Shown piece after piece: positions 5,391-24,719 of a stretch of 24,719 bases of DNA. This DNA is from a virus, in the IMG/VR virus record IMGVR_UViG_3300025012_000276, positions 1-24,719 of that record; one strand, 5' to 3'. The notes under the pieces were generated by a model. That model ran no database searches and had not been told where the DNA came from. It was given only the letters and a program-made list of their open reading frames with translations. The position numbers and the translations under genes are program-made. Position 1 is the stretch's first letter; every line of letters begins with the position of its first letter.

Positions 5391-8300
5391 ATGGTAAGCT
5401 CCTATCAGCAACAGCAGCAAAGAAAGATAAAGGGCCTTTACGATGACACGCTTTACGGACAGCGGCTGTCTTTGTCGGGCGCAGCTGGCAGAACGTCCGA
5501 AACCCCCACGCTTTCCGCGGCCTCCAAGGCTAAACTTTCATCTGCGGTTGCCGGGACCGTCTCTCAGCCCAAACGACCTCCTCCTGGCTACGACAAGCTA
5601 ACCCCGCTCGAACAATCGTTCTCTGAGATATTTCCGGGTATTGCTCCCTGGATTTTGCGTGGGACCGGCGCGGTGGGCGGAGGGGTACTTGGCTTTGCCG
5701 TGGGAGGCCCGGTTGGGGCTGTCGTGGGAGGAGCGGCGGGCGCAACATTCATCGAGTCCATTCTGGACACGAAGGTTGGTGATTGGCTATTCAAGGGGTT
5801 GGATTACGGGGCAGAAGTTACAGAAAAAGCCATAGGGACGGCCTACCTCATCGCCAACGACGACCAGTTGGAGGCGCTGAGGGGGACACAAATGAAGGGC
5901 ACAAGCTCGCTGGCCTGGCTTGACATCGCTACAGATCCAAAAAAGCGAGCACTTTTCCTTTCGGCCTGGCGAGCCTCCAGCATGTTCTACGAGAGCATCG
6001 CCCCGAAGGACGTTGGGGGATTGCTCAAAGTCAGTCAGGCGCTTGGCGGCTTCGAGCAGTTCTCCCCCTTCGCCTCGGAAGAAGAAAAAGAACAAGTCCG
6101 TATAGAGCAGCAGGAGATATGGGGTGAGTGGGACACGTATTGGGGCGAACAGAAAGAGCACTGGCGGAAGGTGTTTGCCGGTGAACCGCTGCCTGACATC
6201 GGCGGCCTGCCGCAGCTTATCGCCATGCGTGAGCAGATATTCAGCGGGCGCGACCCCGATGAGGTATTGACGGAATACCAGCAATCCCTCGGCATGCTCG
6301 CCTTCCGCGGGCAAATGTTCGACAGCCTGGGCCATATCGTCGCCGATCCCATAAACTTCATTATGCCCAAACTAAAGCCGGTCGAGAAAGGCAAGGCTCT
6401 CACCGAATACGTGCTCGCCGCCAGGAAGGCGCCGCAGGTGACGCAGGCGGTGGATGACATCAAGCGGGCCCAGAAACTCTTCCTCGCCGCCGAGGACGTG
6501 GCCGAGAAATCGCGCCTGGCCGATGACATGGTGAGAATTGCCGATAGCCTGGAGACAGCCACCTTCAGCAAGATCGACGAACTCTCGGACATCACCCTGG
6601 GGCTAAAGAAAGCGGTGGAGAGCGGCGAGGGCTTGGACAAAGCGATTGGCAGGCTGGACGACATCATGCGCCGCTTCGACGAGGTGAAGGACGCCTCGCT
6701 GATGGAGCGCAAGGTGGCGGCGCTGTTTGGTGGAGACCCGCTCAACCCCCCGGATTACTACTTCAAGCTCACCAATGCCACAAAGAACATTCCTCTTGGG
6801 TCCCGCCTCGTGGGCGGCGTGCTGCGCTTTTTCACTCTCACCTCCGAATCGAGAGCGCGCATTTTCGTGAACAACATCTCGGACACGCTGCGCATCATCA
6901 CCGCCGAGGGCAACATTGCAGACCCCAGGACGCCGTACCTGTGGGTGCAGAATTTCGCCAAAGGCGCGGCAGGGGCATTTGGAGACAGGCTGGGGCATAT
7001 GTTCATCACCCCCGTGGGCAGGCACGTGCAGGCGGTTCTCAAAGCCTCGATGACCAAATTTGCCGAGGCCCTCACCGCCTACGACGCCCTCAAGACGCAG
7101 CGGGAAATGGCTTACACCATCGCCCGCTTGCTGGACGACAGCCCCGGCAACATTGTCAAGATGCTGCAAGCGGGCGAGTCCAACGCCGTGTTCCAGAGGC
7201 TGACGAAACTGGTGGGCACGCAGCCGGGCGTGAAGCTGCTGGACGACATCGGAGCGGGGCTGGTCAAGCAGCAAGACTTGGTGAAGCTGGGCGAGATACT
7301 GCGCTCGACAAAGAACAACATCATTCCCTGGACGCCAGAACTGCTGCGCGGCAAGATGCTCTCGGACATGCTGGAAGTGGCGGCAAAACTGGCGGAGACG
7401 CAGTTTGGGGTGAAAGAGATAGGCATATTCAGGAAAGCAACCGAGGCCATGAAGTCGGTCGAGAGCCTGCTGCTGCTGGGCTTGAACGGGCTTTACCCGG
7501 TCAACAACTTCTTCAACGGCGAACTGACCATGATCGCCCGCGGACTGTTCAACATGATGACCACCGATCAGGCACTGAAATATTGGGATGAGGCAGTTGG
7601 CTTCCGGCCCTCCAATCTGATGAAAGGCTTCGGTATCTCTGGCGAGGAAGCCATAGCAGGGGTATCGGACATCGAAAAGGCTGCCATGAAAATCCTGGAT
7701 GACGCACGCTGGGGAGATAACCAGAAGTTCCTCAAGACCGTCAGGGATGCGGCCAGGAAACCCAAGCTGGCTCGATCTATAGCGGCAATAACGGAGTCGA
7801 GGCAACGCCTGCGCGCCACCACCTCCGCACACATGAAAGTCTTTCCGCAGATCAAGAAGGGGATGATCTCGGGGATGGACGTGGCTGAACCGGGTTTGCG
7901 GGAGGCGCTGAACATCGGCGACCCCAATCTGGCGCGGGCCTTCGAGGAGGCCGTGCAGTCCTCGCTTTCCGTGAACGACATCGGCAAACTCCGCCAGACG
8001 AAGAACCTGAACTGGAACGTGGAGAGCATCATCCGGCAGGCGGGAGAGCAGTTGGGGATGCCGACCGAGACCCTGCGAATGTTCCTGGGCGAGGAGGTGC
8101 TGGAGGGATTGCGGCGTGTGGTGGACGACATCAAGTTGAACCCCACCGCCGAACGCATTTCCTCCGGCATCAGCGACATGAAGCGCACCTTTCAGGATGG
8201 ACTGGAGGCGGCTTACGTCAGGGAACTCGAATACCGCGCCGCCGAGTACGCGGCCAAGATCGAGACCGAAGGCATTCACGGCGTGGCGATGGTGTATGGC

Positions 8301-11300
8301 GAGGTGGCCGATTCCATCTTCGCCCGCCAGGTGGCGCACACCATGCGCCTCGACGAGCAGGTGCCGAAAATCCTGGACATCGAGAACGCGGCCCTGCGCA
8401 ACAGCGCGTGGAAGGGCATCCTGGGGGACAGCGACATCGCCTGGCGTAGAACCTGGCAATTCCAGGAAGCGGCGTTCAAGGGCATTGCCGATGGCTTGAA
8501 GGGGCGCGGGGCAAAGCTCACTCAGGACTTCACCGACGGTTTTCGCTCGCTGAAAAAGACCACCGGCGATTTCATCACCAAGCGCAACAAACTGTGGGAC
8601 GACTTCTTCGAGGACATCGTAGCCAAAAAATTCCCCGATGACTTTTCGAGGTTTGCCCGCGGGGACGAGATCCGCGAGATTTTGACGAAGGAATACCAGA
8701 ACCTCATCGAGACAACCGAGCGCGCCTACCTGAAGATGGACACGGTGGTGGTGAACAGCTTCCGTGACCCGCGCCTGCGCTCGCAGGTGAGCATGTGGCG
8801 CAGCACCATCCGGCGCATGCGCATCGCAGACATGGAGAGCATGGCCGATTTCCGCGGCGTGCTTGCGGGCGTTCCGAGAGCGGAGCAGGCGGCGATGTGG
8901 AGGGACTACAACTTCGCACGCCGCCGCGTGTGGGCCAACATCAACCTGCTCGAAAACGCGGGCCGGCGCATGGTGGCCGGAGACCCCGAGGCGCTGCGCA
9001 TGTTCTCACAGGTTCAGGACTTGCCTCTGTTTCAGGCCAGGGCTGCCGAAGCCGTGGAGCAGGCCGAGAGATTGTCCCTGCGTAAGCTTGACCCCGTGCA
9101 GCAGAGCGACATCTTCCGGCAGGCCGAACTCGGGTTTGCCGATACGCCTGTCTCCGAACTGCCGCCCGATTTGAGAACAGCCTTGCAATTCCAGATCGAA
9201 GAAATGATGAGTGATATGACCATCGCCAAGCCAGGGCGGAGGATCATGGATTACGACGTGGCTGGACGGGGTGGCTTGTCGGAGGTAAGTGGCATCTCGT
9301 CTAGCTACCCGTATTGGTACAGCGAACTCAACCCCTACCTGCGATTGGCGGACGGGACTGTGCTGCGCGGCAAGGCCGCCGTGGAAGAGGCGCTGAACAT
9401 ACTCGTGCGCGGCGAGGGAGATACGGGCTACTCGATATTCGGGGAGCTGCGCAGGATCGCCTTCCGCGAACTGGCGGACGGCGGGTTGCCCGAGGATTTC
9501 TGGAAGGTGATGGACGAGATTGGTGAGGAGGGCGTTTCCCTGGTGCCGCTTTCTAGGGCGGGGGAAATGGATAACTTTGTTGATGCCATAAAACAAGCTG
9601 ATATTCAGATTGCTCGTAAGGGCATTGAGAGTTTGAAGGGAGAAGAATTTCGTCGAGCCTCCGAATTACTATTAGAACATGGCTTACCGAGTGAAAATGA
9701 ACGCCTCAATCAACTAATCAACAATCTTAGTGAAACTCTTGCGAAGCTCAACAAGGCTGGGGCAGACCCCCAACTACTTAAATTAGCCTCACAACAGATT
9801 TCTGATATTCGTAGCCATTTTCAAACAGTTTTGGATCGTGTTCAACGCAGAAAATTTTTGGGGAAGGCGACAGACATGGGAGCGCGCAAGCCACCCGTGC
9901 AGCCTATCAAAGACACAGAACCTTTCATGGCCGATTTCGACAGCCTGGTGGGGCGCATCGAGGCGCGGCAGGCGGGAATAGACGAGGTGTGGTTCGAGTT
10001 CACCGCGCCGATGGTGGACGAGGTCGAGCGCCGCCTACTGGCAATGCTGGACGAGAAGCCAACCAGCATTGCAAAATTGCCCGCCGCTACACAAGCGCAG
10101 CTTGACCGCTACCTCAACCGCGCCACCGGAGAACTGCGCAACGCCCAACTCGTTTCCTCCAGGTTGTCCGAGAAGATGGCGGATGGCGTGATGCTCAACT
10201 ACAGCAGGCAATACGGCTTCGACGTGGCGATGGGCTATGCCGCTCCCTTCCCCTACTGGTGGACACACTCGATTGCCTCCTGGCTGGTCAATTCGGTGGA
10301 CAGACCGGCGATGCTTTCCACCTATTTCAAGATGGAAAGGTTTCTCAACGAGGTCGTGGGAGACAAAGAGAATTTCCCCAGCCGCCTGCGGGGGCGGGTA
10401 AAGATCAGCCTGCCCTTCGTACCCGAGGAATTCGGGGAAATCTGGTTGGACCCGGGGCGCATGTTCGGCCTGCCGTTTGAGCAATTCTTCGACCCCTACG
10501 TGAACCTGATGCGGGAGAACGAGAGCATGCAGTACCGCATCGGGGTCACGCTGGGGCAGATGGTCGAGTCCGGTGCAATCACCCAGCAGCAATACGCCAA
10601 CGCACTATCTGGGAATGACCCCGCGCTCTACGACCGCGCCAAAGGCATCGTACTCGACCAGGACAGCACGCAGCAATACGACGTCATGGACTTTATGAGC
10701 ATGAGCACCAGCGCGCACCTGCCCTATCAGATCGCCTGGAACATCCTCAAAGGCAGGCCGGAGCGCATTGGCCCATTGCCGTTTACGCGCACGCTAAAAG
10801 GGGTGGCCGGACTGTTGGGAATCAAGGTGGGAGCGGAGGGAGTGGACAAATGGGGCAACATGCGCGAGAGCATCGGACTGCCATACTTTGACGAGTTTGA
10901 ACGTTACCGTGTGCGCCGCGAATTGTCCAACATGACCGCCGAGGGCATCATTGACTCCGACACCGCCATACGCGCCATGATCGAGGAGGAGGGCGAGTGG
11001 TATCTGTATGCGCTCGACCGCGTGAACAAGCAGCAGGGCTTCTCCACGCTGCTGCGCATGGTGGGCTTGCCCACGCTTCCTTACCCTGAAGGTGAGAAGG
11101 CATTGAGGGCGAAGAAGGACGAGTTCGAGGCCGCCATGCGAGCCTGGGATGCGGGCAACGTGGATGCCGCCACAACCTTCTTCGATGAGAACCCGGACTA
11201 CCTCACGCGGCTGGCAATCGGGAAAGAACCCGAGGAGCAGATGCAGAGGTTCACCGTTGACCTGCTGTGGGATGCCTATAATAATCTCTCATCGGTGGAC

Positions 11301-12119
11301 AAGAGGATTGCCCGCGAGGCCCTGGGCGAGGAGTTCCAGACCAAGTTCCTCGATAAGGATACGCGCAACACCGACTCCATCCCCGTCGAGAAACTGTCGG
11401 GCTGGCTGAAGATGCTGGGAGGACAGCCTATTGGCAGCCTGGGCGAGGACGCCGTCCCCATCGAACTCGCGCCGCCTGAGATTGCGAACCTCACGCAGGC
11501 TTTCTACGACCGCCGCAGCCTTGATTTCCCCGACTGGTTCCAATTGCAGCAGGATTACTTCGCCCTCCCCGAAGGCGAGAAGAGGGACGAATTCCTACAG
11601 GAAAACCCGGCCCTGAAAGATTATTGGGCGTGGCGCGACGATTTCATGCGCCGCAACCCGAAGACGATTCCCTATCTCAACGACGACCCGGATAAGGAGA
11701 TACGCGACCTCACGGTTGGCTCGATATGGGACATCTATATGAACCTCTCCTCGGTGGACAAACGCAGCGTGAGGGAGGCTTTCGGGGATGAGTTCGTGAG
11801 CAAGTTCCTCGACCGCGACACCAGGAACTACAACGCCATAGACATCGAAACCCTCTCCGGTTGGTTGGAGGAGCTTGGCGGGCAGTCACTCACCGGCGCT
11901 TCCGCGGAATCGCTTGCGCCCTCCCTCTCCACCGAGGAAATCCTGTCTCGCCTCTACTTTGTCGGAGGCTATGAACTGGTCAATCAGGTCACGGATTACG
12001 TCCAGGGAGGCAGGCTTGCGCCCCAGGTTTTGGAGGCTTTGCAGGAGATTGCGGAGGCCCTCGGGATTGACATCGACAGCTTGCTAGAAGAATTGAGCAT
12101 GGTGCTGGTATTGCAATGA
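5391..12119 (+). CDS. Giant virion protein (2242 aa), probable internal/ejection protein
   Basis: The ATG follows the previous stop TAG directly, with AGG just before it. Visible parts: a Gln-rich N-terminus; a glycine-zipper hydrophobic segment at about 85-124 that could insert in a membrane; long charged helical regions; a hydrophobic stretch at about 690-725 (LLLLGLNGLYPVNNF); an AT-rich in-frame segment at about 1393-1492; an aromatic segment at about 1614-1640 (PFPYWWTHS); and a duplicated 59-aa domain at 1954-2012 and 2107-2165. I see no lysozyme, transglycosylase, protease or RNA polymerase motif. Size, helical content and membrane-active-looking segments fit internal virion proteins that leave the capsid with the DNA, such as T7 gp15/gp16 or the large proteins of N4-like phages. 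Its place between portal and scaffold differs from T7, where such genes follow the nozzle. Role inferred, coding certain. Confidence 0.75.
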   Translation: MVSSYQQQQQRKIKGLYDDTLYGQRLSLSGAAGRTSETPTLSAASKAKLSSAVAGTVSQPKRPPPGYDKLTPLEQSFSEIFPGIAPWILRGTGAVGGGVLGFAVGGPVGAVVGGAAGATFIESILDTKVGDWLFKGLDYGAEVTEKAIGTAYLIANDDQLEALRGTQMKGTSSLAWLDIATDPKKRALFLSAWRASSMFYESIAPKDVGGLLKVSQALGGFEQFSPFASEEEKEQVRIEQQEIWGEWDTYWGEQKEHWRKVFAGEPLPDIGGLPQLIAMREQIFSGRDPDEVLTEYQQSLGMLAFRGQMFDSLGHIVADPINFIMPKLKPVEKGKALTEYVLAARKAPQVTQAVDDIKRAQKLFLAAEDVAEKSRLADDMVRIADSLETATFSKIDELSDITLGLKKAVESGEGLDKAIGRLDDIMRRFDEVKDASLMERKVAALFGGDPLNPPDYYFKLTNATKNIPLGSRLVGGVLRFFTLTSESRARIFVNNISDTLRIITAEGNIADPRTPYLWVQNFAKGAAGAFGDRLGHMFITPVGRHVQAVLKASMTKFAEALTAYDALKTQREMAYTIARLLDDSPGNIVKMLQAGESNAVFQRLTKLVGTQPGVKLLDDIGAGLVKQQDLVKLGEILRSTKNNIIPWTPELLRGKMLSDMLEVAAKLAETQFGVKEIGIFRKATEAMKSVESLLLLGLNGLYPVNNFFNGELTMIARGLFNMMTTDQALKYWDEAVGFRPSNLMKGFGISGEEAIAGVSDIEKAAMKILDDARWGDNQKFLKTVRDAARKPKLARSIAAITESRQRLRATTSAHMKVFPQIKKGMISGMDVAEPGLREALNIGDPNLARAFEEAVQSSLSVNDIGKLRQTKNLNWNVESIIRQAGEQLGMPTETLRMFLGEEVLEGLRRVVDDIKLNPTAERISSGISDMKRTFQDGLEAAYVRELEYRAAEYAAKIETEGIHGVAMVYGEVADSIFARQVAHTMRLDEQVPKILDIENAALRNSAWKGILGDSDIAWRRTWQFQEAAFKGIADGLKGRGAKLTQDFTDGFRSLKKTTGDFITKRNKLWDDFFEDIVAKKFPDDFSRFARGDEIREILTKEYQNLIETTERAYLKMDTVVVNSFRDPRLRSQVSMWRSTIRRMRIADMESMADFRGVLAGVPRAEQAAMWRDYNFARRRVWANINLLENAGRRMVAGDPEALRMFSQVQDLPLFQARAAEAVEQAERLSLRKLDPVQQSDIFRQAELGFADTPVSELPPDLRTALQFQIEEMMSDMTIAKPGRRIMDYDVAGRGGLSEVSGISSSYPYWYSELNPYLRLADGTVLRGKAAVEEALNILVRGEGDTGYSIFGELRRIAFRELADGGLPEDFWKVMDEIGEEGVSLVPLSRAGEMDNFVDAIKQADIQIARKGIESLKGEEFRRASELLLEHGLPSENERLNQLINNLSETLAKLNKAGADPQLLKLASQQISDIRSHFQTVLDRVQRRKFLGKATDMGARKPPVQPIKDTEPFMADFDSLVGRIEARQAGIDEVWFEFTAPMVDEVERRLLAMLDEKPTSIAKLPAATQAQLDRYLNRATGELRNAQLVSSRLSEKMADGVMLNYSRQYGFDVAMGYAAPFPYWWTHSIASWLVNSVDRPAMLSTYFKMERFLNEVVGDKENFPSRLRGRVKISLPFVPEEFGEIWLDPGRMFGLPFEQFFDPYVNLMRENESMQYRIGVTLGQMVESGAITQQQYANALSGNDPALYDRAKGIVLDQDSTQQYDVMDFMSMSTSAHLPYQIAWNILKGRPERIGPLPFTRTLKGVAGLLGIKVGAEGVDKWGNMRESIGLPYFDEFERYRVRRELSNMTAEGIIDSDTAIRAMIEEEGEWYLYALDRVNKQQGFSTLLRMVGLPTLPYPEGEKALRAKKDEFEAAMRAWDAGNVDAATTFFDENPDYLTRLAIGKEPEEQMQRFTVDLLWDAYNNLSSVDKRIAREALGEEFQTKFLDKDTRNTDSIPVEKLSGWLKMLGGQPIGSLGEDAVPIELAPPEIANLTQAFYDRRSLDFPDWFQLQQDYFALPEGEKRDEFLQENPALKDYWAWRDDFMRRNPKTIPYLNDDPDKEIRDLTVGSIWDIYMNLSSVDKRSVREAFGDEFVSKFLDRDTRNYNAIDIETLSGWLEELGGQSLTGASAESLAPSLSTEEILSRLYFVGGYELVNQVTDYVQGGRLAPQVLEALQEIAEALGIDIDSLLEELSMVLVLQ
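9567..9866 (+). other. AT-rich in-frame insert in the giant protein gene
   Basis: Hand counts give about 42% GC over 9601-9840, against 63% at 9421-9480 and 67% at 9961-10020. The frame stays open and encodes about 100 residues (about 1393-1492) of a Leu/Lys/Glu/Asn-rich helical, probably coiled-coil, segment. Codon choice shifts to A/T third bases. This looks like a segment acquired separately from the rest of the gene. Confidence 0.7.
11250..11885 (+). repeat. Duplicated 59-residue C-terminal domain
   Basis: Copies at 11250-11426 and 11709-11885 both run from a (F/L)TV...W motif to LGGQ. They share NLSSVDKR, an RE(A/F)xG(D/E)EF stretch, KFLD(K/R)DTRN and LSGWL. The stretch before each copy also looks related (xxFxxENPxL and DFM/YLN-type segments), so the duplicated unit may be nearer 150 residues. 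Confidence 0.85.
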
Positions 12120-14318: not shown

Positions 14319-15440
14319 ATGAGATTGCCGCTAATCATCAGACGGATGATAAACCGAGGCCGCGCCGTTGCTCTTGTGGGCTTTGCCAACAGCACTTTCC
14401 CCGATGCGAAATATTCCAAGGCGGACGAGTTCTGGACGATGAACCAGGGCGCGATGCCTCACAATCCACTAAATCTACCGGGGGTGGACAGACTCTTTGA
14501 AATGCACAGCTACGAGGAGCACCTTCTTTCTCAGAACGTGAGAGACAACGAGAAGTACAGAGATTGGCTGGGCGAGGAACATCCTTTCCCCATTTACGTG
14601 CTGGAGGAGCGAAAGGAAATTCCCTCCGGCGTGCACTATCCCATCGAGGAAATCCTAAAAGACATCTTCAGGCATTGCTGGCGCGGTGCGGAAAGAAATA
14701 AATTCCTCACCAGCACAGCAGAACAGATGGTGGCGCTTGCAATACACGAGGGATTTGGTCAAATTGAAATTTATGGAATCGAGATGGCTTCTGGCTCGGA
14801 ATATCGGTATCAGCGCGAGGGCATGAGCCACATGCTCGGCGTTGCCGAGGGACGCGGAATAGATGTTGTTTTGCACAAGCGCTCCGCGCTGCTGCGGGCG
14901 AAACTGTATGGCTACGAAGCCGGGCAAATGCTCCCTCACAGCCAGATGCAGCCTCTACTGGAAGCCTTTAGCAAGTACGAGGCGAAGGCCCGAGTGAATG
15001 CAGTGGCAAAAGACGGGATTGCCCAAGTGAATGCCCTGGCCTGGCAGAACTTATACGGCGGGGCGCGGCAAGCCTGCGAGAAACTCATGAGCCTGGGGAA
15101 ACTGACCACTCGGCAAACGGCGGAGACATACTATCGAGCCTACGCCATGCAAAAGGCCACCTGGCTGGGCGAGGCCAATGTTCTGTTTGGGACATACGAA
15201 GGTAAACTGGACAAGAAAAGTTATCAAAAGGCCGTGGAAGCTCTCAACCTGATGTATTCCTACGACGGCGCGATGCAGGCTTGTGAGCAAGTCATCGCCT
15301 TGTGCGACCTTCAGGAGGCGAGGTTGGAACTTGAAATGACGGTCGTTCCTGTGGACTTGGAGCACGAACTAATAGAGCCTGTGAATGGCAAATTGGATGA
15401 AGTAACTGTCAGAAGAATGGAGAAAGATGCCGCAGTATAG
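14319..15440 (+). CDS. Rossmann-like phage protein, unknown function
   Basis: 373 aa. The N-terminal strand-loop AVALVGFANS (16-25) is followed by FWTMNQ (38-43), RLFEMH (58-63), IYGIEM (151-156), EYRYQRE (161-167) and GVAEGRG (174-180). This pattern (LVG..., W.xN, FE.H, YGxxM, EYxYQR, G.A.GrGi) is one I know from uncharacterised phage proteins of probable Rossmann fold. Its ligand is not known to me. The remainder (about 215-345) is helical and may be a separate module. It follows the hairpin with only a weak ribosome site, and its end overlaps the FmdB-like gene by 14 nt. The position between head and tail genes, together with a zinc-ribbon partner, suggests an accessory or enzymatic role rather than a virion shell part, but this is not shown. 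Confidence 0.6.
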   Translation: MRLPLIIRRMINRGRAVALVGFANSTFPDAKYSKADEFWTMNQGAMPHNPLNLPGVDRLFEMHSYEEHLLSQNVRDNEKYRDWLGEEHPFPIYVLEERKEIPSGVHYPIEEILKDIFRHCWRGAERNKFLTSTAEQMVALAIHEGFGQIEIYGIEMASGSEYRYQREGMSHMLGVAEGRGIDVVLHKRSALLRAKLYGYEAGQMLPHSQMQPLLEAFSKYEAKARVNAVAKDGIAQVNALAWQNLYGGARQACEKLMSLGKLTTRQTAETYYRAYAMQKATWLGEANVLFGTYEGKLDKKSYQKAVEALNLMYSYDGAMQACEQVIALCDLQEARLELEMTVVPVDLEHELIEPVNGKLDEVTVRRMEKDAAV

Positions 15441-15753
15441 CTTCGCCTGTGACTGTGGGAACTCTCTCGACACCGTCCGGTCTATCAAGACCGGCCCTCC
15501 TCAGCATTTGAAGTGCGCGCTGTGTGGGCGCTTGATGCAACGCATTTACCGGGTGGCTCCCAACGTACCGAAGGTAACGCGCAATCCCTGGGACGTGATG
15601 TATGAAACCATCATAGAACCCGGCTGGCAAAAGAGCATGGAGAAATACGAACGCAGCGGCCAGCGGAGGCGAGACGACCAATATCGCCTGAGCCAGGCTG
15701 AGAAAAGAAAGACCGAGAAGGAAAACCAAAAACGAACCGTCCTAGGAGCGTGA
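15427..15753 (+). CDS. FmdB-like zinc-ribbon protein
   Basis: 108 aa. The N-terminus MPQYSFACDCG with C8/C10 and then C30/C33 (CALCG) matches the FmdB-type putative regulatory zinc ribbon (MPxYxFxCxxCG), except that the first pair is CxC rather than CxxC. Residues about 60-105 form a highly charged, basic helix (many Arg, Lys, Glu, Gln), a plausible nucleic-acid or protein contact. It overlaps the upstream gene by 14 nt and has GGAGAAAG just before its ATG. Small FmdB-like ribbons are common in phage structural clusters, but their role there is not established. A structural zinc module or a late regulator are both possible. Confidence 0.75.
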   Translation: MPQYSFACDCGNSLDTVRSIKTGPPQHLKCALCGRLMQRIYRVAPNVPKVTRNPWDVMYETIIEPGWQKSMEKYERSGQRRRDDQYRLSQAEKRKTEKENQKRTVLGA

Positions 15754-15754
15754 A

Positions 15755-16246
15755 ATGACTAAACTCACCGATCTCACAAAAGCACAACTGGCAGAGGAAA
15801 ACGAGCGCCTGCAGCAACTGCTCATCCAGAAGGAAAAGGAACTGAACGATGCGCAGGATGCTTTGAAAGCACAGCTTGGCGGGACGATGCAGGAGGGCTA
15901 CCTGGTGCTCACGCCAAACCCCGTCACAACTGTGACCTCCGGCGTGCGCATCTACGCCGGACGCGCCTTCCTTCCAATTGTGCGTCCGCCCAAAGGCGCG
16001 CGCCCTACCCTTGCTCCTATGACCAAGGAGGAATCAAATGAACAGTACATGGCGCGCAAGGACAAGTTCCACGCGGCGCTTCAGGAGTGGGAGGGCTACG
16101 ACGCCCAACAGCAGCTTCTACGCACCCTGGTCGCCGATTTCGGCTACGACGTGAGGGAGTTGAAAGCCTCCGACCTGGCGCAGCTGCGGGAAGACCCGCT
16201 GGCCGCCGAACAGGTTGGGCTGAGCCTTGCGGAAGTGCTGGGCTAA
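15755..16246 (+). CDS. Coiled-coil protein, unknown function
   Basis: 163 aa, family not recognised. An N-terminal coiled coil (about 5-40, rich in Leu/Glu/Gln/Lys) leads to a short beta-like stretch (about 48-75), then a second helical region with many Leu and Glu (about 88-160) that ends in an acidic LREDP...LAEVLG segment. There are no cysteines and no signal peptide. AGGAG sits 7 nt before the ATG, and the stop of the zinc-ribbon gene is 1 nt upstream, so the two are co-transcribed. The gene precedes the tail adaptor directly. A virion accessory or head-completion role is plausible from place alone. Confidence 0.6.
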   Translation: MTKLTDLTKAQLAEENERLQQLLIQKEKELNDAQDALKAQLGGTMQEGYLVLTPNPVTTVTSGVRIYAGRAFLPIVRPPKGARPTLAPMTKEESNEQYMARKDKFHAALQEWEGYDAQQQLLRTLVADFGYDVRELKASDLAQLREDPLAAEQVGLSLAEVLG

Positions 16247-21644: not shown

Positions 21645-21963
21645 ACTGGAATACATTTGGCTTGACCCGAGACGGATAAAGATCAGGGAGGGCGCGCAGG
21701 ACGTGGGGCGCACCGTCACCTTCGACGACACCGTGTCCAGCGTGACCGTGACCGCCTACCTGGGGACGAAGGACGTGACCGCCACCGTGTATTCGACCGG
21801 AACACAGAGCATAAGCGGGAAGGTGTTGACGCTGAAAACATTCTCCGCGTTCGCCCCTGGGAAGATTTACGTGGTGAAGATCCTGGGGACTGTGGCGGGG
21901 CTGGTGTGGGTGTGGGCGTTCGAGTACGAAACACAGCAATCGTACCAGAAGTGGAGCGGCTGA
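21637..21963 (+). CDS. Small Ig-like beta protein, tail region
   Basis: 108 aa. The ATG lies in the last codons of the fibre gene (8-nt overlap) and its TGA overlaps the next ATG by 1 nt, so three tail-tip genes are translationally coupled. The sequence GRTVTFDDTVSSVTVTAYL, then KDVTATV, SISGKVLTL and APGKIYVVKIL...WVWAFEYE reads as a bacterial Ig-like or fibronectin-like beta sandwich of about 85 residues. Such domains decorate phage tails and bind weakly to cell-surface sugars. No enzyme motif is present. Confidence 0.65.
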   Translation: MAELEYIWLDPRRIKIREGAQDVGRTVTFDDTVSSVTVTAYLGTKDVTATVYSTGTQSISGKVLTLKTFSAFAPGKIYVVKILGTVAGLVWVWAFEYETQQSYQKWSG

Positions 21964-22577
21964 TGCTGGGCGATTTGCTGTTGAAGGTGATCGAGGGGAC
22001 GGCGACGAAGCAGGAGGTGGAGCGGCTGGCCGAGCAGTTGAACGGCTGGGAGAGGACGCTGGGGAGGATTGGGGGGAAAGAGGCGAAGTTCGATAGTATT
22101 TTTGCGGAGGCGGGAGAGTTTCGGCGGCTGCCACATGAGGCGGCCATATTGAGTAGCTTGTCTGCTCCCCATGCGACGCTCACGAATAACACGGACACGA
22201 CGATTCAAGACATGTCGGGGACGGTGCAACGGCTTGGGTTGAGAGTAGACGAAACGAACTTCTCATACATTGAATTCGAGTCCGTGCCCAACGAAAGTCT
22301 GTACCTATGGAATTTCACTGTGGACTTTGCCGTGAGTTCAGTAGGGGATAGAGAGTTGAGATGGCAACTTTACAATAGAGATACCAGCACTTGGGAGGCC
22401 TCCTACTACACTGAGCGCCTGCGCGCAGAGAACAGTGGCAAAACTACTCTAAACTCCGCTCTCATCTATCATGTTGTGGATGATAAATATAGACGAGTGC
22501 GAGTACAGTTGAAGCAGACAAGCGGAGGAGACTTAGCTATTGACATCCCCCAATTTAGGGTTCTCAGGCTACGTTAA
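21963..22577 (+). CDS. Tail-tip/receptor-binding-like protein with helical base
   Basis: 204 aa from the ATG at 21963, which overlaps the previous TGA by 1 nt and follows GGAGCGG. The frame also opens at an upstream 21906 ATG, but that would run through the Ig-like gene and lacks a site. Residues 1-58 are helical and charged (VEGTATKQEVERLAEQL-type), possibly a trimer stalk. Residues about 72-204 are beta-rich (TIQDMSGTVQRLGLRV, YLWNFTVDFAV, YRRVRVQLKQ). DNA composition changes inside the gene from about 60% GC near the start to 38-45% in 22321-22500 (hand counts), a sign of exchange of the distal domain. Last + strand gene before the antisense gene; its stop shares TTAA with that gene's stop. 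Confidence 0.65.
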   Translation: MLGDLLLKVIEGTATKQEVERLAEQLNGWERTLGRIGGKEAKFDSIFAEAGEFRRLPHEAAILSSLSAPHATLTNNTDTTIQDMSGTVQRLGLRVDETNFSYIEFESVPNESLYLWNFTVDFAVSSVGDRELRWQLYNRDTSTWEASYYTERLRAENSGKTTLNSALIYHVVDDKYRRVRVQLKQTSGGDLAIDIPQFRVLRLR

Positions 22578-22816
22578 TACCCGCCAATCCACCAATCGGT
22601 AGGTTCATTTATGGCGCACGATTTCCAGGGCAAGCATCCGGCGAAGAACAGGAACATGAAACTGCCATCCTCTTCCGCGTATGCAACCTCCCAAGAAGGG
22701 AAGGTGGTCACTACGCAATCTACAGGACAGGTTTCGCTTTGCCGCGGGATGGGGGAAACCCGCAGCGAAACAGCCAAGATGAACATCGCAAGGATTATTC
22801 TGGTATATTTACTCAT
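22574..22816 (-). CDS. Antisense small membrane or secreted four-Cys protein
   Basis: 80 aa on the minus strand, not recognised as a family. The start has a full AAAGGAG (22826-22832), 9 nt from the ATG, and an extended -10 promoter upstream. The N-terminus is MSKYTR followed by a hydrophobic run IILAMFILAVSL (7-18), typical of a signal peptide or membrane anchor, with no clear AxA site and no lipobox. Then come C30/C34 and C61/C67, which could form two disulfides outside the cell. Around the second pair lies a short hydrophobic patch (SFMFLFFAGC), so a second membrane segment is possible. Many Trp/Glu and a TDWWIGGY end. It stands alone on the opposite strand between tail and lysis genes, a usual place for a moron, superinfection-exclusion, antiholin or spanin-like gene. 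Function unknown. Confidence 0.7.
   Translation of the reverse strand: MSKYTRIILAMFILAVSLRVSPIPRQSETCPVDCVVTTFPSWEVAYAEEDGSFMFLFFAGCLPWKSCAINEPTDWWIGGY
22731..22771. repeat. Bulged inverted repeat inside the antisense gene
   Basis: GTTTCGCT (22731-22738) pairs with AGCGAAAC (22764-22771), and GCGGG (22744-22748) with CCCGC (22759-22763); TTGCC (22739-22743) is bulged and the loop is 10 nt. It may fold in either transcript. No T tract follows on either strand, so terminator function is unlikely. Confidence 0.5.
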
Positions 22817-22825
22817 GCTCGACAT

Positions 22826-22832
22826 CTCCTTT
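22826..22832 (-). promoter_or_regulatory. Strong ribosome-binding site of the antisense gene
   Basis: AAAGGAG on the minus strand, 9 nt before the ATG of the small Cys protein. It is the main reason for choosing the MSKYT start over an in-frame ATG at 22825, which would abut the site with no spacer. Confidence 0.8.
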
Positions 22833-22874
22833 GTTGAGCCGTGTGGCGGGCGTCCAAAGCGCTGCGCCACTTCT

Positions 22875-22902
22875 ATTATAGCACAGGAGCGCAAACACAC
22901 AA
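22875..22902 (-). promoter_or_regulatory. Extended -10 promoter of the antisense gene
   Basis: On the minus strand, TATAAT (22875-22880) is an exact -10 preceded by TGC (extended -10). A weak TTGTGT (22897-22902) lies 16 nt upstream as -35. The transcript would begin near 22868, leaving a leader of about 50 nt. TGTGCTATAATA here matches TGTGCTATGCTA at 12129-12140 in 10 of 12 bases. The box region also holds the endolysin ribosome site on the other strand. Confidence 0.65.
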
Positions 22903-24423
22903 GTGTCTAAATACATTCGCATGGGCGTGGACGCGGGGAGGTTCAAGTGTAAGGATGGGACGGTCGTCAGCGTCTCGCGCCACCAATGCCCCGAATGGGC
23001 GCAGCGCTTCCCCGGCGGCGAGGGCTGGTCGGCCTACCCGCACACCTGGGAGCACACCTATGAAGCCGTAAGCGGCGGCAACGGCATCACGCTAACCCCC
23101 GCCTACTGGCAATGGATGTGGAACCCGCTCATCAACCGCTACGAGGCCATCTATGCGCTCTCGGAGGTGGGGGGCGGATACATAAACCTGGCCGCCAACC
23201 TCGACAAGGGCTGGTCATCCAAGTACCACGTGCCCAAAGACAGCGCGATAATGCCAAAGGTAGAGGGCATCACCAGCGCCTACAATATCCACAAGATCAT
23301 GCTGGACGCGAGCGGGAACCCGATACGGAAGAACGGCAGCACCAGGATAGAAGCCCTGCGCCTGAAAGACGGGCCGCCGGACCCGAACCTGGTCAATCCT
23401 CAGACCACGCCCTGGCTTTTCGTGCAGTTCCGCTCGATTGATAGGGACGGGAATATCGGCTACGCTCCCAAAGGAATAAAGGGCTGTTACTTCCCCATCT
23501 TAGTCAAAGAGCAAGCCTGGGTGAAGGACGAGTATATCGAGGCCTTTTTAGACGAATACCCCACAGCGGCAGCGCCGCCACCGGAGGAACCAATGCCAGA
23601 ACGAACCGCAGGAACAGCGATAGACATCAGCGCATTTCAGGGGCCGATTGATTGGAAGAATCTGACACGCGTTGACCTCGTCATCATGCGCGCCACCTAC
23701 GGCTTCGGCGGCGCAACCGAGGACGCCTGGTTCCAGGAGTATTGGAGGCAGGCCTGGTATTGGAGCTATCACCGGCAGGCCTATTCCTGGCACTACCCGA
23801 ACCTATCCCCGGAAAGCCAGCACAATGTGTTCGTGGACGTGATGGACAGGGCCGGGGGCTTGAAACCGGAGGATGGCGCACCGGACCTGGACTTCGAGGA
23901 TCTGCGAAGCGTGCCGATACAGGAGGCATTGGACAGCCTGGAACAACGACTGCTGATGACCGACCTGGCTTTCAACTGCATCACCGGCGTGTACAGCCGA
24001 GCCTCCCTTCTGAGCCAGGCCACGAAGAACCAACTGGAATTCCTGCGCGGACGCCCGCTGTGGCTGGCCGGGTATCCCTTCGCCAAGACCACGCCCATCC
24101 CCATTGATTACCTGCCGCCCGACCAAATCCCGGCGGGCTACCTCACCTTTGACCTGGGCTGGGAGAAGTGGCAGTGGGCGGAGACGCTGCCATACAACGG
24201 CCTGCCTGTGGGATTGGTGGGCGGTGCGACGTATTCAGGCAAGGGCGACGCCGACATCACCAGGGGCACGTTCGAGGCCTACTGGAAGCGGACGGGGCGC
24301 ACGCTCAGGACTGACCCGCGCTTCGTATACCGGCGCAAGCTGCACTCGCTAATGGCAGTGACCTTTCCGAACTCAATTGGGGAAAGATATGCAAAGCACC
24401 CGTTCCTGGACAGGAGAGCATAG
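22903..24423 (+). CDS. Endolysin: GH25 muramidase with unknown N-terminal domain
   Basis: 506 aa starting with GTG; AGGAG at 22885-22889 is 13 nt upstream, a rather long spacing. The next ATG is residue 7. The GH25 domain runs from about 239 to 465: AIDISAFQGPIDW (239-251) is the family's DxSxxQGxxDW opening with D241, and PDLDFED carries D328, D330 and E332, the expected catalytic DxDxE; WEKWQW follows later. It cuts the N-acetylmuramic acid to N-acetylglucosamine bond of peptidoglycan. A Pro/Ala/Glu-rich linker (about 221-236) separates it from a 220-aa N-terminal part, rich in aromatic residues, that I do not recognise; it may bind the wall. No signal peptide, so a holin is needed for release unless it is virion-bound. 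Overlaps the next gene by 1 nt. Confidence 0.88.
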   Translation: MSKYIRMGVDAGRFKCKDGTVVSVSRHQCPEWAQRFPGGEGWSAYPHTWEHTYEAVSGGNGITLTPAYWQWMWNPLINRYEAIYALSEVGGGYINLAANLDKGWSSKYHVPKDSAIMPKVEGITSAYNIHKIMLDASGNPIRKNGSTRIEALRLKDGPPDPNLVNPQTTPWLFVQFRSIDRDGNIGYAPKGIKGCYFPILVKEQAWVKDEYIEAFLDEYPTAAAPPPEEPMPERTAGTAIDISAFQGPIDWKNLTRVDLVIMRATYGFGGATEDAWFQEYWRQAWYWSYHRQAYSWHYPNLSPESQHNVFVDVMDRAGGLKPEDGAPDLDFEDLRSVPIQEALDSLEQRLLMTDLAFNCITGVYSRASLLSQATKNQLEFLRGRPLWLAGYPFAKTTPIPIDYLPPDQIPAGYLTFDLGWEKWQWAETLPYNGLPVGLVGGATYSGKGDADITRGTFEAYWKRTGRTLRTDPRFVYRRKLHSLMAVTFPNSIGERYAKHPFLDRRA

Positions 24424-24719
24424 TGCCGTCAAAGCCAAACATCACGGTAAGCGAAGAGCGCCTGAACCTGGCACTCGCCACCTTTGAACTCAAAGTCACT
24501 CGTGAGATCGCGGCCTCGGAGGACCGCACCCGCACCCGCATCGAGGAGGTAAAGACAGCAATCGCAGGCAACCCCGAAATGATCGCTGGGATGAGGGCCA
24601 GGATTGCGGACAACACAGAAGACATCGAGGCTTTGCAGGCGAGCGATAAACGCTGGACGACGATTGCGATCTTGGCCTCGAGCGTGATCTCCGGCGTGAT
24701 CTCCGGCATTTCGGCTCTT
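24423..24719 (+). CDS. XhlA/holin-like membrane protein, cut by window end
   Basis: The gene is open to the end of the window (99 codons seen, no stop). GTG overlaps the endolysin stop by 1 nt and AGGAG at 24412-24416 lies 6 nt before it. Residues 1-75 are polar and helical with coiled-coil character (RIEEVKTAI, ARIADNTEDIEALQASD). From about residue 76, RWTTIAILASSVISGVISG begins a transmembrane segment. A coiled coil followed by one C-terminal membrane helix is the plan of XhlA-type lysis proteins. These help a holin or endolysin open the membrane, and an adjacent endolysin fits. Other small membrane proteins of similar form cannot be excluded without the C-terminus. Confidence 0.75.
   Translation, partial: MPSKPNITVSEERLNLALATFELKVTREIAASEDRTRTRIEEVKTAIAGNPEMIAGMRARIADNTEDIEALQASDKRWTTIAILASSVISGVISGISAL
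24684..24707 (+). repeat. Perfect tandem 12-nt repeat in the membrane segment
   Basis: GTGATCTCCGGC occurs twice head to tail (24684-24695, 24696-24707), encoding VISG twice in the predicted transmembrane helix. It gives a small-residue face and could be a slippage site that changes helix length. Confidence 0.8.

What the first reader, a model, noticed from the sequence alone, without database searches (positions are those of the whole stretch)
22574..22816. Lone minus-strand membrane/secreted Cys protein between tail and lysis genes
Every other gene of the window is on the + strand. This one carries a 7-nt AAAGGAG at 9-nt spacing, an exact extended -10, a hydrophobic N-terminal segment and four cysteines (C30/C34, C61/C67). 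Independent expression units of this kind in phage late regions are typically morons, which act on the host or on competing phages. I cannot place it in a known family, so it is the best candidate here for an undescribed function.
Basis: partly seen in the sequence, partly recalled or inferred. Interest (0 to 1): 0.72.

Follow-up and report, generated by a model that had tools for sequence, protein, structure and literature searches.

The report
Orphan exported minus-strand phage accessory gene
A small secreted-looking protein gene sits backwards between the tail and lysis genes of an uncultured phage, with its own promoter and the same start leader as a homing-endonuclease gene elsewhere in that genome, so it is probably an added gene that acts on the infected cell's envelope.

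Summary
Length alone proves nothing (26% of random models have such an ORF), but the ORF with a strong SD is rare (0.16%), and adding the extended -10 was never seen in 40,000 models. The ORF fills the only large gap (325 nt) in the late operon. Four relatives have no minus-strand gene between tail and lysin. New evidence that it is a gene: 29 nt ending at its start recur, 27/29 identical, at the start of a GIY-YIG homing-endonuclease-like gene in another part of the same phage. Each copy follows a hairpin of unrelated sequence. Twenty other gene starts in the window reach at most 20/29. The protein has no detectable relative in any collection searched. Best reading: an independently transcribed accessory gene (moron) for an exported protein. 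The most likely job is superinfection exclusion at the envelope, like T5 Llp, because it lies against a putative receptor-binding tail gene and shares a low-GC island with its 3' part. It has no lipobox and no similarity to Llp, and no integrase was found, so the function is inference.

The parts
22574..22816 (-). 80-aa orphan gene: N-terminal signal/anchor (residues 4-18), then about 60 acidic residues with 4 Cys (pI about 4.1)
   Evidence: no family in Pfam, PHROGs, NCBIfam, PADLOC or PDB (7, 8, 78, 79, 24)
22812..22840 (-). 29-nt start leader (SD + ATG) repeated 27/29 before the GIY-YIG gene of the same phage (L035 8688-8716; G001)
   Evidence: predicted weak hairpin with the SD in its loop (59)
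22826..22832 (-). Shine-Dalgarno AAAGGAG, 9 nt from ATG
22843..22870 (-). hairpin at or near the predicted 5' end of the transcript; the GIY-YIG leader has a hairpin of different sequence at the same place
   Evidence: z -2.3 here, -5.2 in the GIY-YIG copy
22875..22883 (-). extended -10, TGCTATAAT, close to the SD and start of the lysin gene on the other strand
21963..22577 (+). 204-aa putative tail-tip/receptor-binding protein (helical N-terminus, beta-sandwich C-terminus); its stop overlaps the stop of the minus gene; 3' part is 48.7% GC against 61% for its 5' part
   Evidence: moderate-confidence model
22903..24423 (+). endolysin, GH25 domain
   Evidence: (PF01183 E=1.6e-11)
24423..24719 (+). 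start of a holin-associated protein (weak XhlA-like match); holin and terminator follow on L035

Best explanation
The ORF is a real, independently transcribed accessory gene (a moron) inserted flush against the end of the last tail gene. Its promoter makes a short minus-strand mRNA that begins near a hairpin and carries a start leader also used by a homing-endonuclease-like gene of the same phage. The product is exported by Sec: about 60 residues, cleaved or anchored, probably with disulfides. Most likely it acts at the envelope of the infected cell as a superinfection-exclusion or receptor-blocking factor, paired with the receptor-binding tail gene beside it, as T5 Llp is with Oad/pb5. Shown from sequence: ORF, SD, -10, hydrophobic N-terminus, repeated leader, absence from relatives, GC island. 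Inferred: transcription, export, disulfides, receptor blocking.
For: Joint rarity of ORF + SD + extended -10. Leader shared 27/29 with a second gene, against at most 20/29 for 20 other starts. Signal-like N-terminus. Only large gap in the late operon. No minus-strand gene between tail and lysin in four relatives. It shares a low-GC island with the 3' part of the adjacent putative receptor-binding gene, whose C-terminal beta-sandwich resembles CBM, TNF and phage tail or baseplate domains. Precedents: T5 llp, 77 aa, lies on the opposite strand next to oad with its own promoter; Llp blocks FhuA (PMC9586334), and BF23 Llp has no homology to it but does the same for BtuB (PMC4728585). Tab, an 83-aa minus-strand moron in a late operon, has its own promoter (PMC10884400).
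Against: No homologue, so no conservation test of the frame. No lipobox and no similarity to Llp. Host unknown, so its envelope type is unknown. The receptor-binding assignment of 21963-22577 rests on a model of mean pLDDT 54. The exclusion step is by analogy only.
Confidence: 0.38

Rival explanations
1. Exported moron with another envelope task: inhibitor of foreign muramidases, change of host surface, or a modulator of lysis timing.
For: Exported-looking Cys protein beside the GH25 lysin and holin genes.
Against: Not co-transcribed with the lysis genes; no match to lysis, inhibitor or defence families.
Confidence: 0.3
2. The repeated 29 bp is first of all a DNA site of the GIY-YIG nuclease (homing or operator site), as I-TevI binds an operator resembling its homing site; the minus gene is then a passenger or its target locus.
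For: One copy lies at the start of a GIY-YIG gene; T4 precedent of operator/homing-site similarity (PMC2988022).
Against: The repeat keeps exact register with SD and ATG in both copies, and the two mismatches both keep an SD (GGAG/GAGG); each copy is preceded by a hairpin of different sequence.
Confidence: 0.12
3. Cytoplasmic or inner-membrane moron (anti-phage factor such as Tab, or an anti-defence factor) whose N-terminus is an uncleaved anchor.
For: Tab has a similar size, strand and promoter layout (PMC10884400); the best cleavage site here is only moderate.
Against: Acidic ectodomain with four Cys fits an oxidising compartment; no PADLOC match.
Confidence: 0.12
4. Not a protein gene: the plus strand codes here (an extension of gene 21963-22577, or ORF 22611-22910) and the minus ORF is its mirror image.
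For: Plus frame open from 22578 to 22910; codon scores equal on the two strands.
Against: Requires reading through TAA; the plus product has no family; promoter, SD, signal segment and repeated leader all sit on the minus strand.
Confidence: 0.06

Closest known systems
T5 Llp and T1-type Cor superinfection-exclusion lipoproteins
   Same: About 80-aa exported precursor, opposite strand, own promoter, next to the (putative) receptor-binding gene; such proteins can lack sequence similarity to one another (BF23 and T5 Llp)
   Different: No lipobox, no sequence similarity, convergent instead of divergent to the tail gene, host and receptor unknown
Tab moron of Pseudomonas phage JBD26
   Same: 83-aa minus-strand gene with its own promoter inside the late operon (PMC10884400)
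   Different: Tab lies between the terminase genes and blocks virion assembly; here a signal-like N-terminus and an envelope target are inferred
Hairpin-controlled phage homing-endonuclease genes (I-TevI, segB, mobE, seg43)
   Same: Structured leader around the RBS; the matching leader here belongs to a GIY-YIG gene
   Different: The minus gene is no nuclease; the SD is predicted in a loop, not in a stem; sharing of one leader by a nuclease gene and another gene did not come up in the papers searched

Membership tests
Phage moron / accessory locus | Own promoter, opposite strand to surrounding late genes | tested here: met
   (sequence only, no transcript data)
Phage moron / accessory locus | Added: absent at the same place in relatives | tested here: met
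   (four distant relatives, none close)
Phage moron / accessory locus | Atypical base composition | tested here: met
   50.6% GC against 58.6% for the window; the island also includes the 3' part of the tail gene
Phage moron / accessory locus | Own terminator | tested here: not met
   none found on the minus strand after 22574 by simple scan
Phage moron / accessory locus | Expressed from a prophage and useful to the host | not testable with these tools
   no RNA data; no tyrosine or serine integrase in the tiling contigs
Llp/Cor superinfection-exclusion lipoprotein | Lipobox cysteine after the signal peptide | tested here: not met
   no Cys before residue 30
Llp/Cor superinfection-exclusion lipoprotein | Gene adjacent to the receptor-binding protein gene | tested here: inconclusive
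   adjacent to 21963-22577, whose role is inferred from a moderate model
Llp/Cor superinfection-exclusion lipoprotein | Sequence similarity | tested here: not met
Llp/Cor superinfection-exclusion lipoprotein | Blocks the phage receptor | not testable with these tools
   needs an experiment
Hairpin-regulated homing-endonuclease leader | Stable hairpin upstream of, or enclosing, the RBS | tested here: inconclusive
   upstream hairpin z -2.3 / -5.2; SD-loop hairpin only z about -1.5

The most novel reading that the evidence does not exclude
A portable start leader (5' hairpin plus SD-presenting loop) is shared by a homing endonuclease and an exported effector of one phage, so that the two selfish or accessory genes are switched on together, perhaps by binding of the nuclease or another factor to the leader.
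Probability: 0.15. Interest if true: 0.65.

Novelty: new member of a known kind. Interest (0 to 1): 0.42.

Why it matters
Independently promoted small genes next to receptor-binding genes are a productive source of superinfection-exclusion proteins, and this one has no relative in any collection searched. If it blocks the receptor it would be an Llp-like factor without a lipid anchor. The leader shared with a GIY-YIG gene is a concrete, testable hint that accessory genes in a phage can be spread or regulated through a common start cassette.

Tried and rejected
Homologue searches of the 80-aa product in IMG/VR, GTDB genomes, INPHARED, Pfam, PHROGs, NCBIfam, PADLOC and PDB: nothing. Rfam: nothing. 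Two leader-pattern scans of IMG/VR: beyond this phage only unrelated matches without the leader context. Leader against phage and plasmid records: none in phages, weak partial matches in plasmids. AlphaFold of the 80-mer: mean pLDDT 55, only the N-terminal helix confident, so no fold search was made. Host search: the capsid profile found no bacterial genome, and relatives cannot be drawn for a virus record. Considered and rejected: spanin or lipoprotein (no lipobox), plus-strand ORF 22611-22910, and a plus-strand terminator at the leader hairpin (z -0.3).

Full report
Observation. The ORF, SD, extended -10, hydrophobic N-terminus and four cysteines are all present at the stated coordinates. 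All other genes of the window are on the plus strand and tightly packed. The 325-nt gap holding this ORF is the only one above 49 nt. ORF length alone is not evidence (26% of Markov models), but the ORF with a 6-7 nt SD occurs in 0.16% of models, and with the extended -10 in none of 40,000. The plus strand is also open across the gap, and codon statistics are silent because the whole stretch is atypical for this phage.

A second copy of the start leader. Contig G001 (IMGVR_UViG_3300025009_001472) overlaps the window start by 10.1 kb; only 1 mismatch was seen over the 4.8 kb compared base by base. L035 (IMGVR_UViG_3300025012_001058) joins the window end to G001, at 94.7% identity over 114 nt at the window end. 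Together they tile about 40.7 kb of one phage. In the leftward region of that genome, GGCTCAACAAAGAGGATGTCGAGCATGAG overlaps the ATG of a 152-aa gene with a GIY-YIG domain (PF01541, PHROG homing endonuclease). It matches 27 of 29 bases of the leader of the minus ORF (GGCTCAACAAAGGAGATGTCGAGCATGAG), SD and ATG in the same register. For 20 other gene starts of the window the best off-site match is 17-20 of 29, and no weaker copy exists in the phage. Both leaders follow a hairpin of similar size and place but of different sequence (-14.3 and -22.4 kcal/mol, z -2.3 and -5.2). A second, weaker hairpin with the SD in its loop is predicted in the repeat itself (z about -1.5), which is not significant. 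This is the best evidence that the minus ORF is translated.

Relatives. Twelve IMG/VR contigs share the capsid (38-100% identity). In four of them with the tail-to-lysis region (L028-L030 and L007), the genes downstream of the tail follow on the plus strand without a minus gene before the lysin; L028 ends before any lysin was identified. L031 gene calls are uncertain. One relative carries a tyrosine integrase and another a resolvase-type recombinase, but neither was found in the contigs of this phage, although an RDF-like protein (PF18897) is present. The lifestyle is therefore open.

Product. Residues 4-18 form a charged plus hydrophobic segment (12-residue mean hydropathy 3.05), with a possible cleavage after AVS17. 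The remainder is acidic, about 60 residues, with CX3C and CX5C pairs. No family or homologue was found, and a single-sequence model is uninformative beyond the first helix.

Neighbour. Gene 21963-22577 ends tail-to-tail with the minus ORF (overlapping stops). Its 5' part has 61% GC and its 3' part 48.7%, like the minus ORF (50.6%). A model of moderate quality gives a C-terminal beta-sandwich whose best structural neighbours are CBMs, TNF-like folds and phage tail or baseplate proteins with low TM scores. A receptor-binding tip exchanged together with the minus gene is plausible but unproven.

Mechanism. The closest functional precedent is T5 Llp: 77 aa, opposite strand, own promoter, next to the receptor-binding gene; it jams the receptor FhuA against further T5 (PMC9586334). 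The BF23 counterpart is unrelated in sequence but does the same for BtuB (PMC4728585). Tab shows that minus-strand morons of this size inside late operons exist with other mechanisms (PMC10884400), and an antisense gene with its own promoter in a Salmonella prophage was read as a moron on the same grounds (PMC7067206). I therefore file the gene as a moron by layout. Export is likely, and envelope superinfection exclusion is the leading but uncertain function. It is not a member of the Llp/Cor lipoproteins, because the lipobox and sequence similarity fail.

The shared leader. T4-type homing endonucleases are often controlled by RNA hairpins at the RBS, and I-TevI also by operator sites resembling its homing site (PMC2988022). 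Whether the repeat here is an RNA leader copied with a start cassette or a DNA site of the GIY-YIG protein cannot be decided from two copies. The exact register with SD and ATG, and the change of GGAG to GAGG (still an SD), favour the first.

Noticed in passing
L035 8688-9170 (same phage, outside the window): GIY-YIG homing-endonuclease-like gene of low GC (36%) in a 52-55% GC neighbourhood, carrying the same leader as the window's minus gene.
   Followed up: yes
window 24606-24719 against L035 11562-11675: The three contigs close into a circle of about 40.7 kb; the last overlap is only 94.7% identical, suggesting strain variation. Beyond the window end lie a holin-like gene and a strong terminator-like hairpin (AAAGACCCTC-GAGGGTCTTT).
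   Followed up: partly
L003 1354-2037 and 7032-7445 (upstream of the terminase, same phage): A protein built of tandem A-Y-x-K-A/T-W/R-E repeats, and a minus-strand pentapeptide-repeat-like protein (ANLSGANLSGANL...).
   Followed up: no
window 5391-12119: 2242-aa protein between portal-like and scaffold-like genes, weakly conserved (about 25-30%) in relative L005; possibly a giant internal virion protein.
   Followed up: no
window 22150-22900: Low-GC island (about 48-52%) covering the 3' part of the last tail gene and the minus gene, in a 58-63% GC surround.
   Followed up: partly
L004 against window 15427-16246: Two small genes downstream of the capsid are only 89-96% identical in part between strains of the same phage, while their neighbours are 100% identical.
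   Followed up: no
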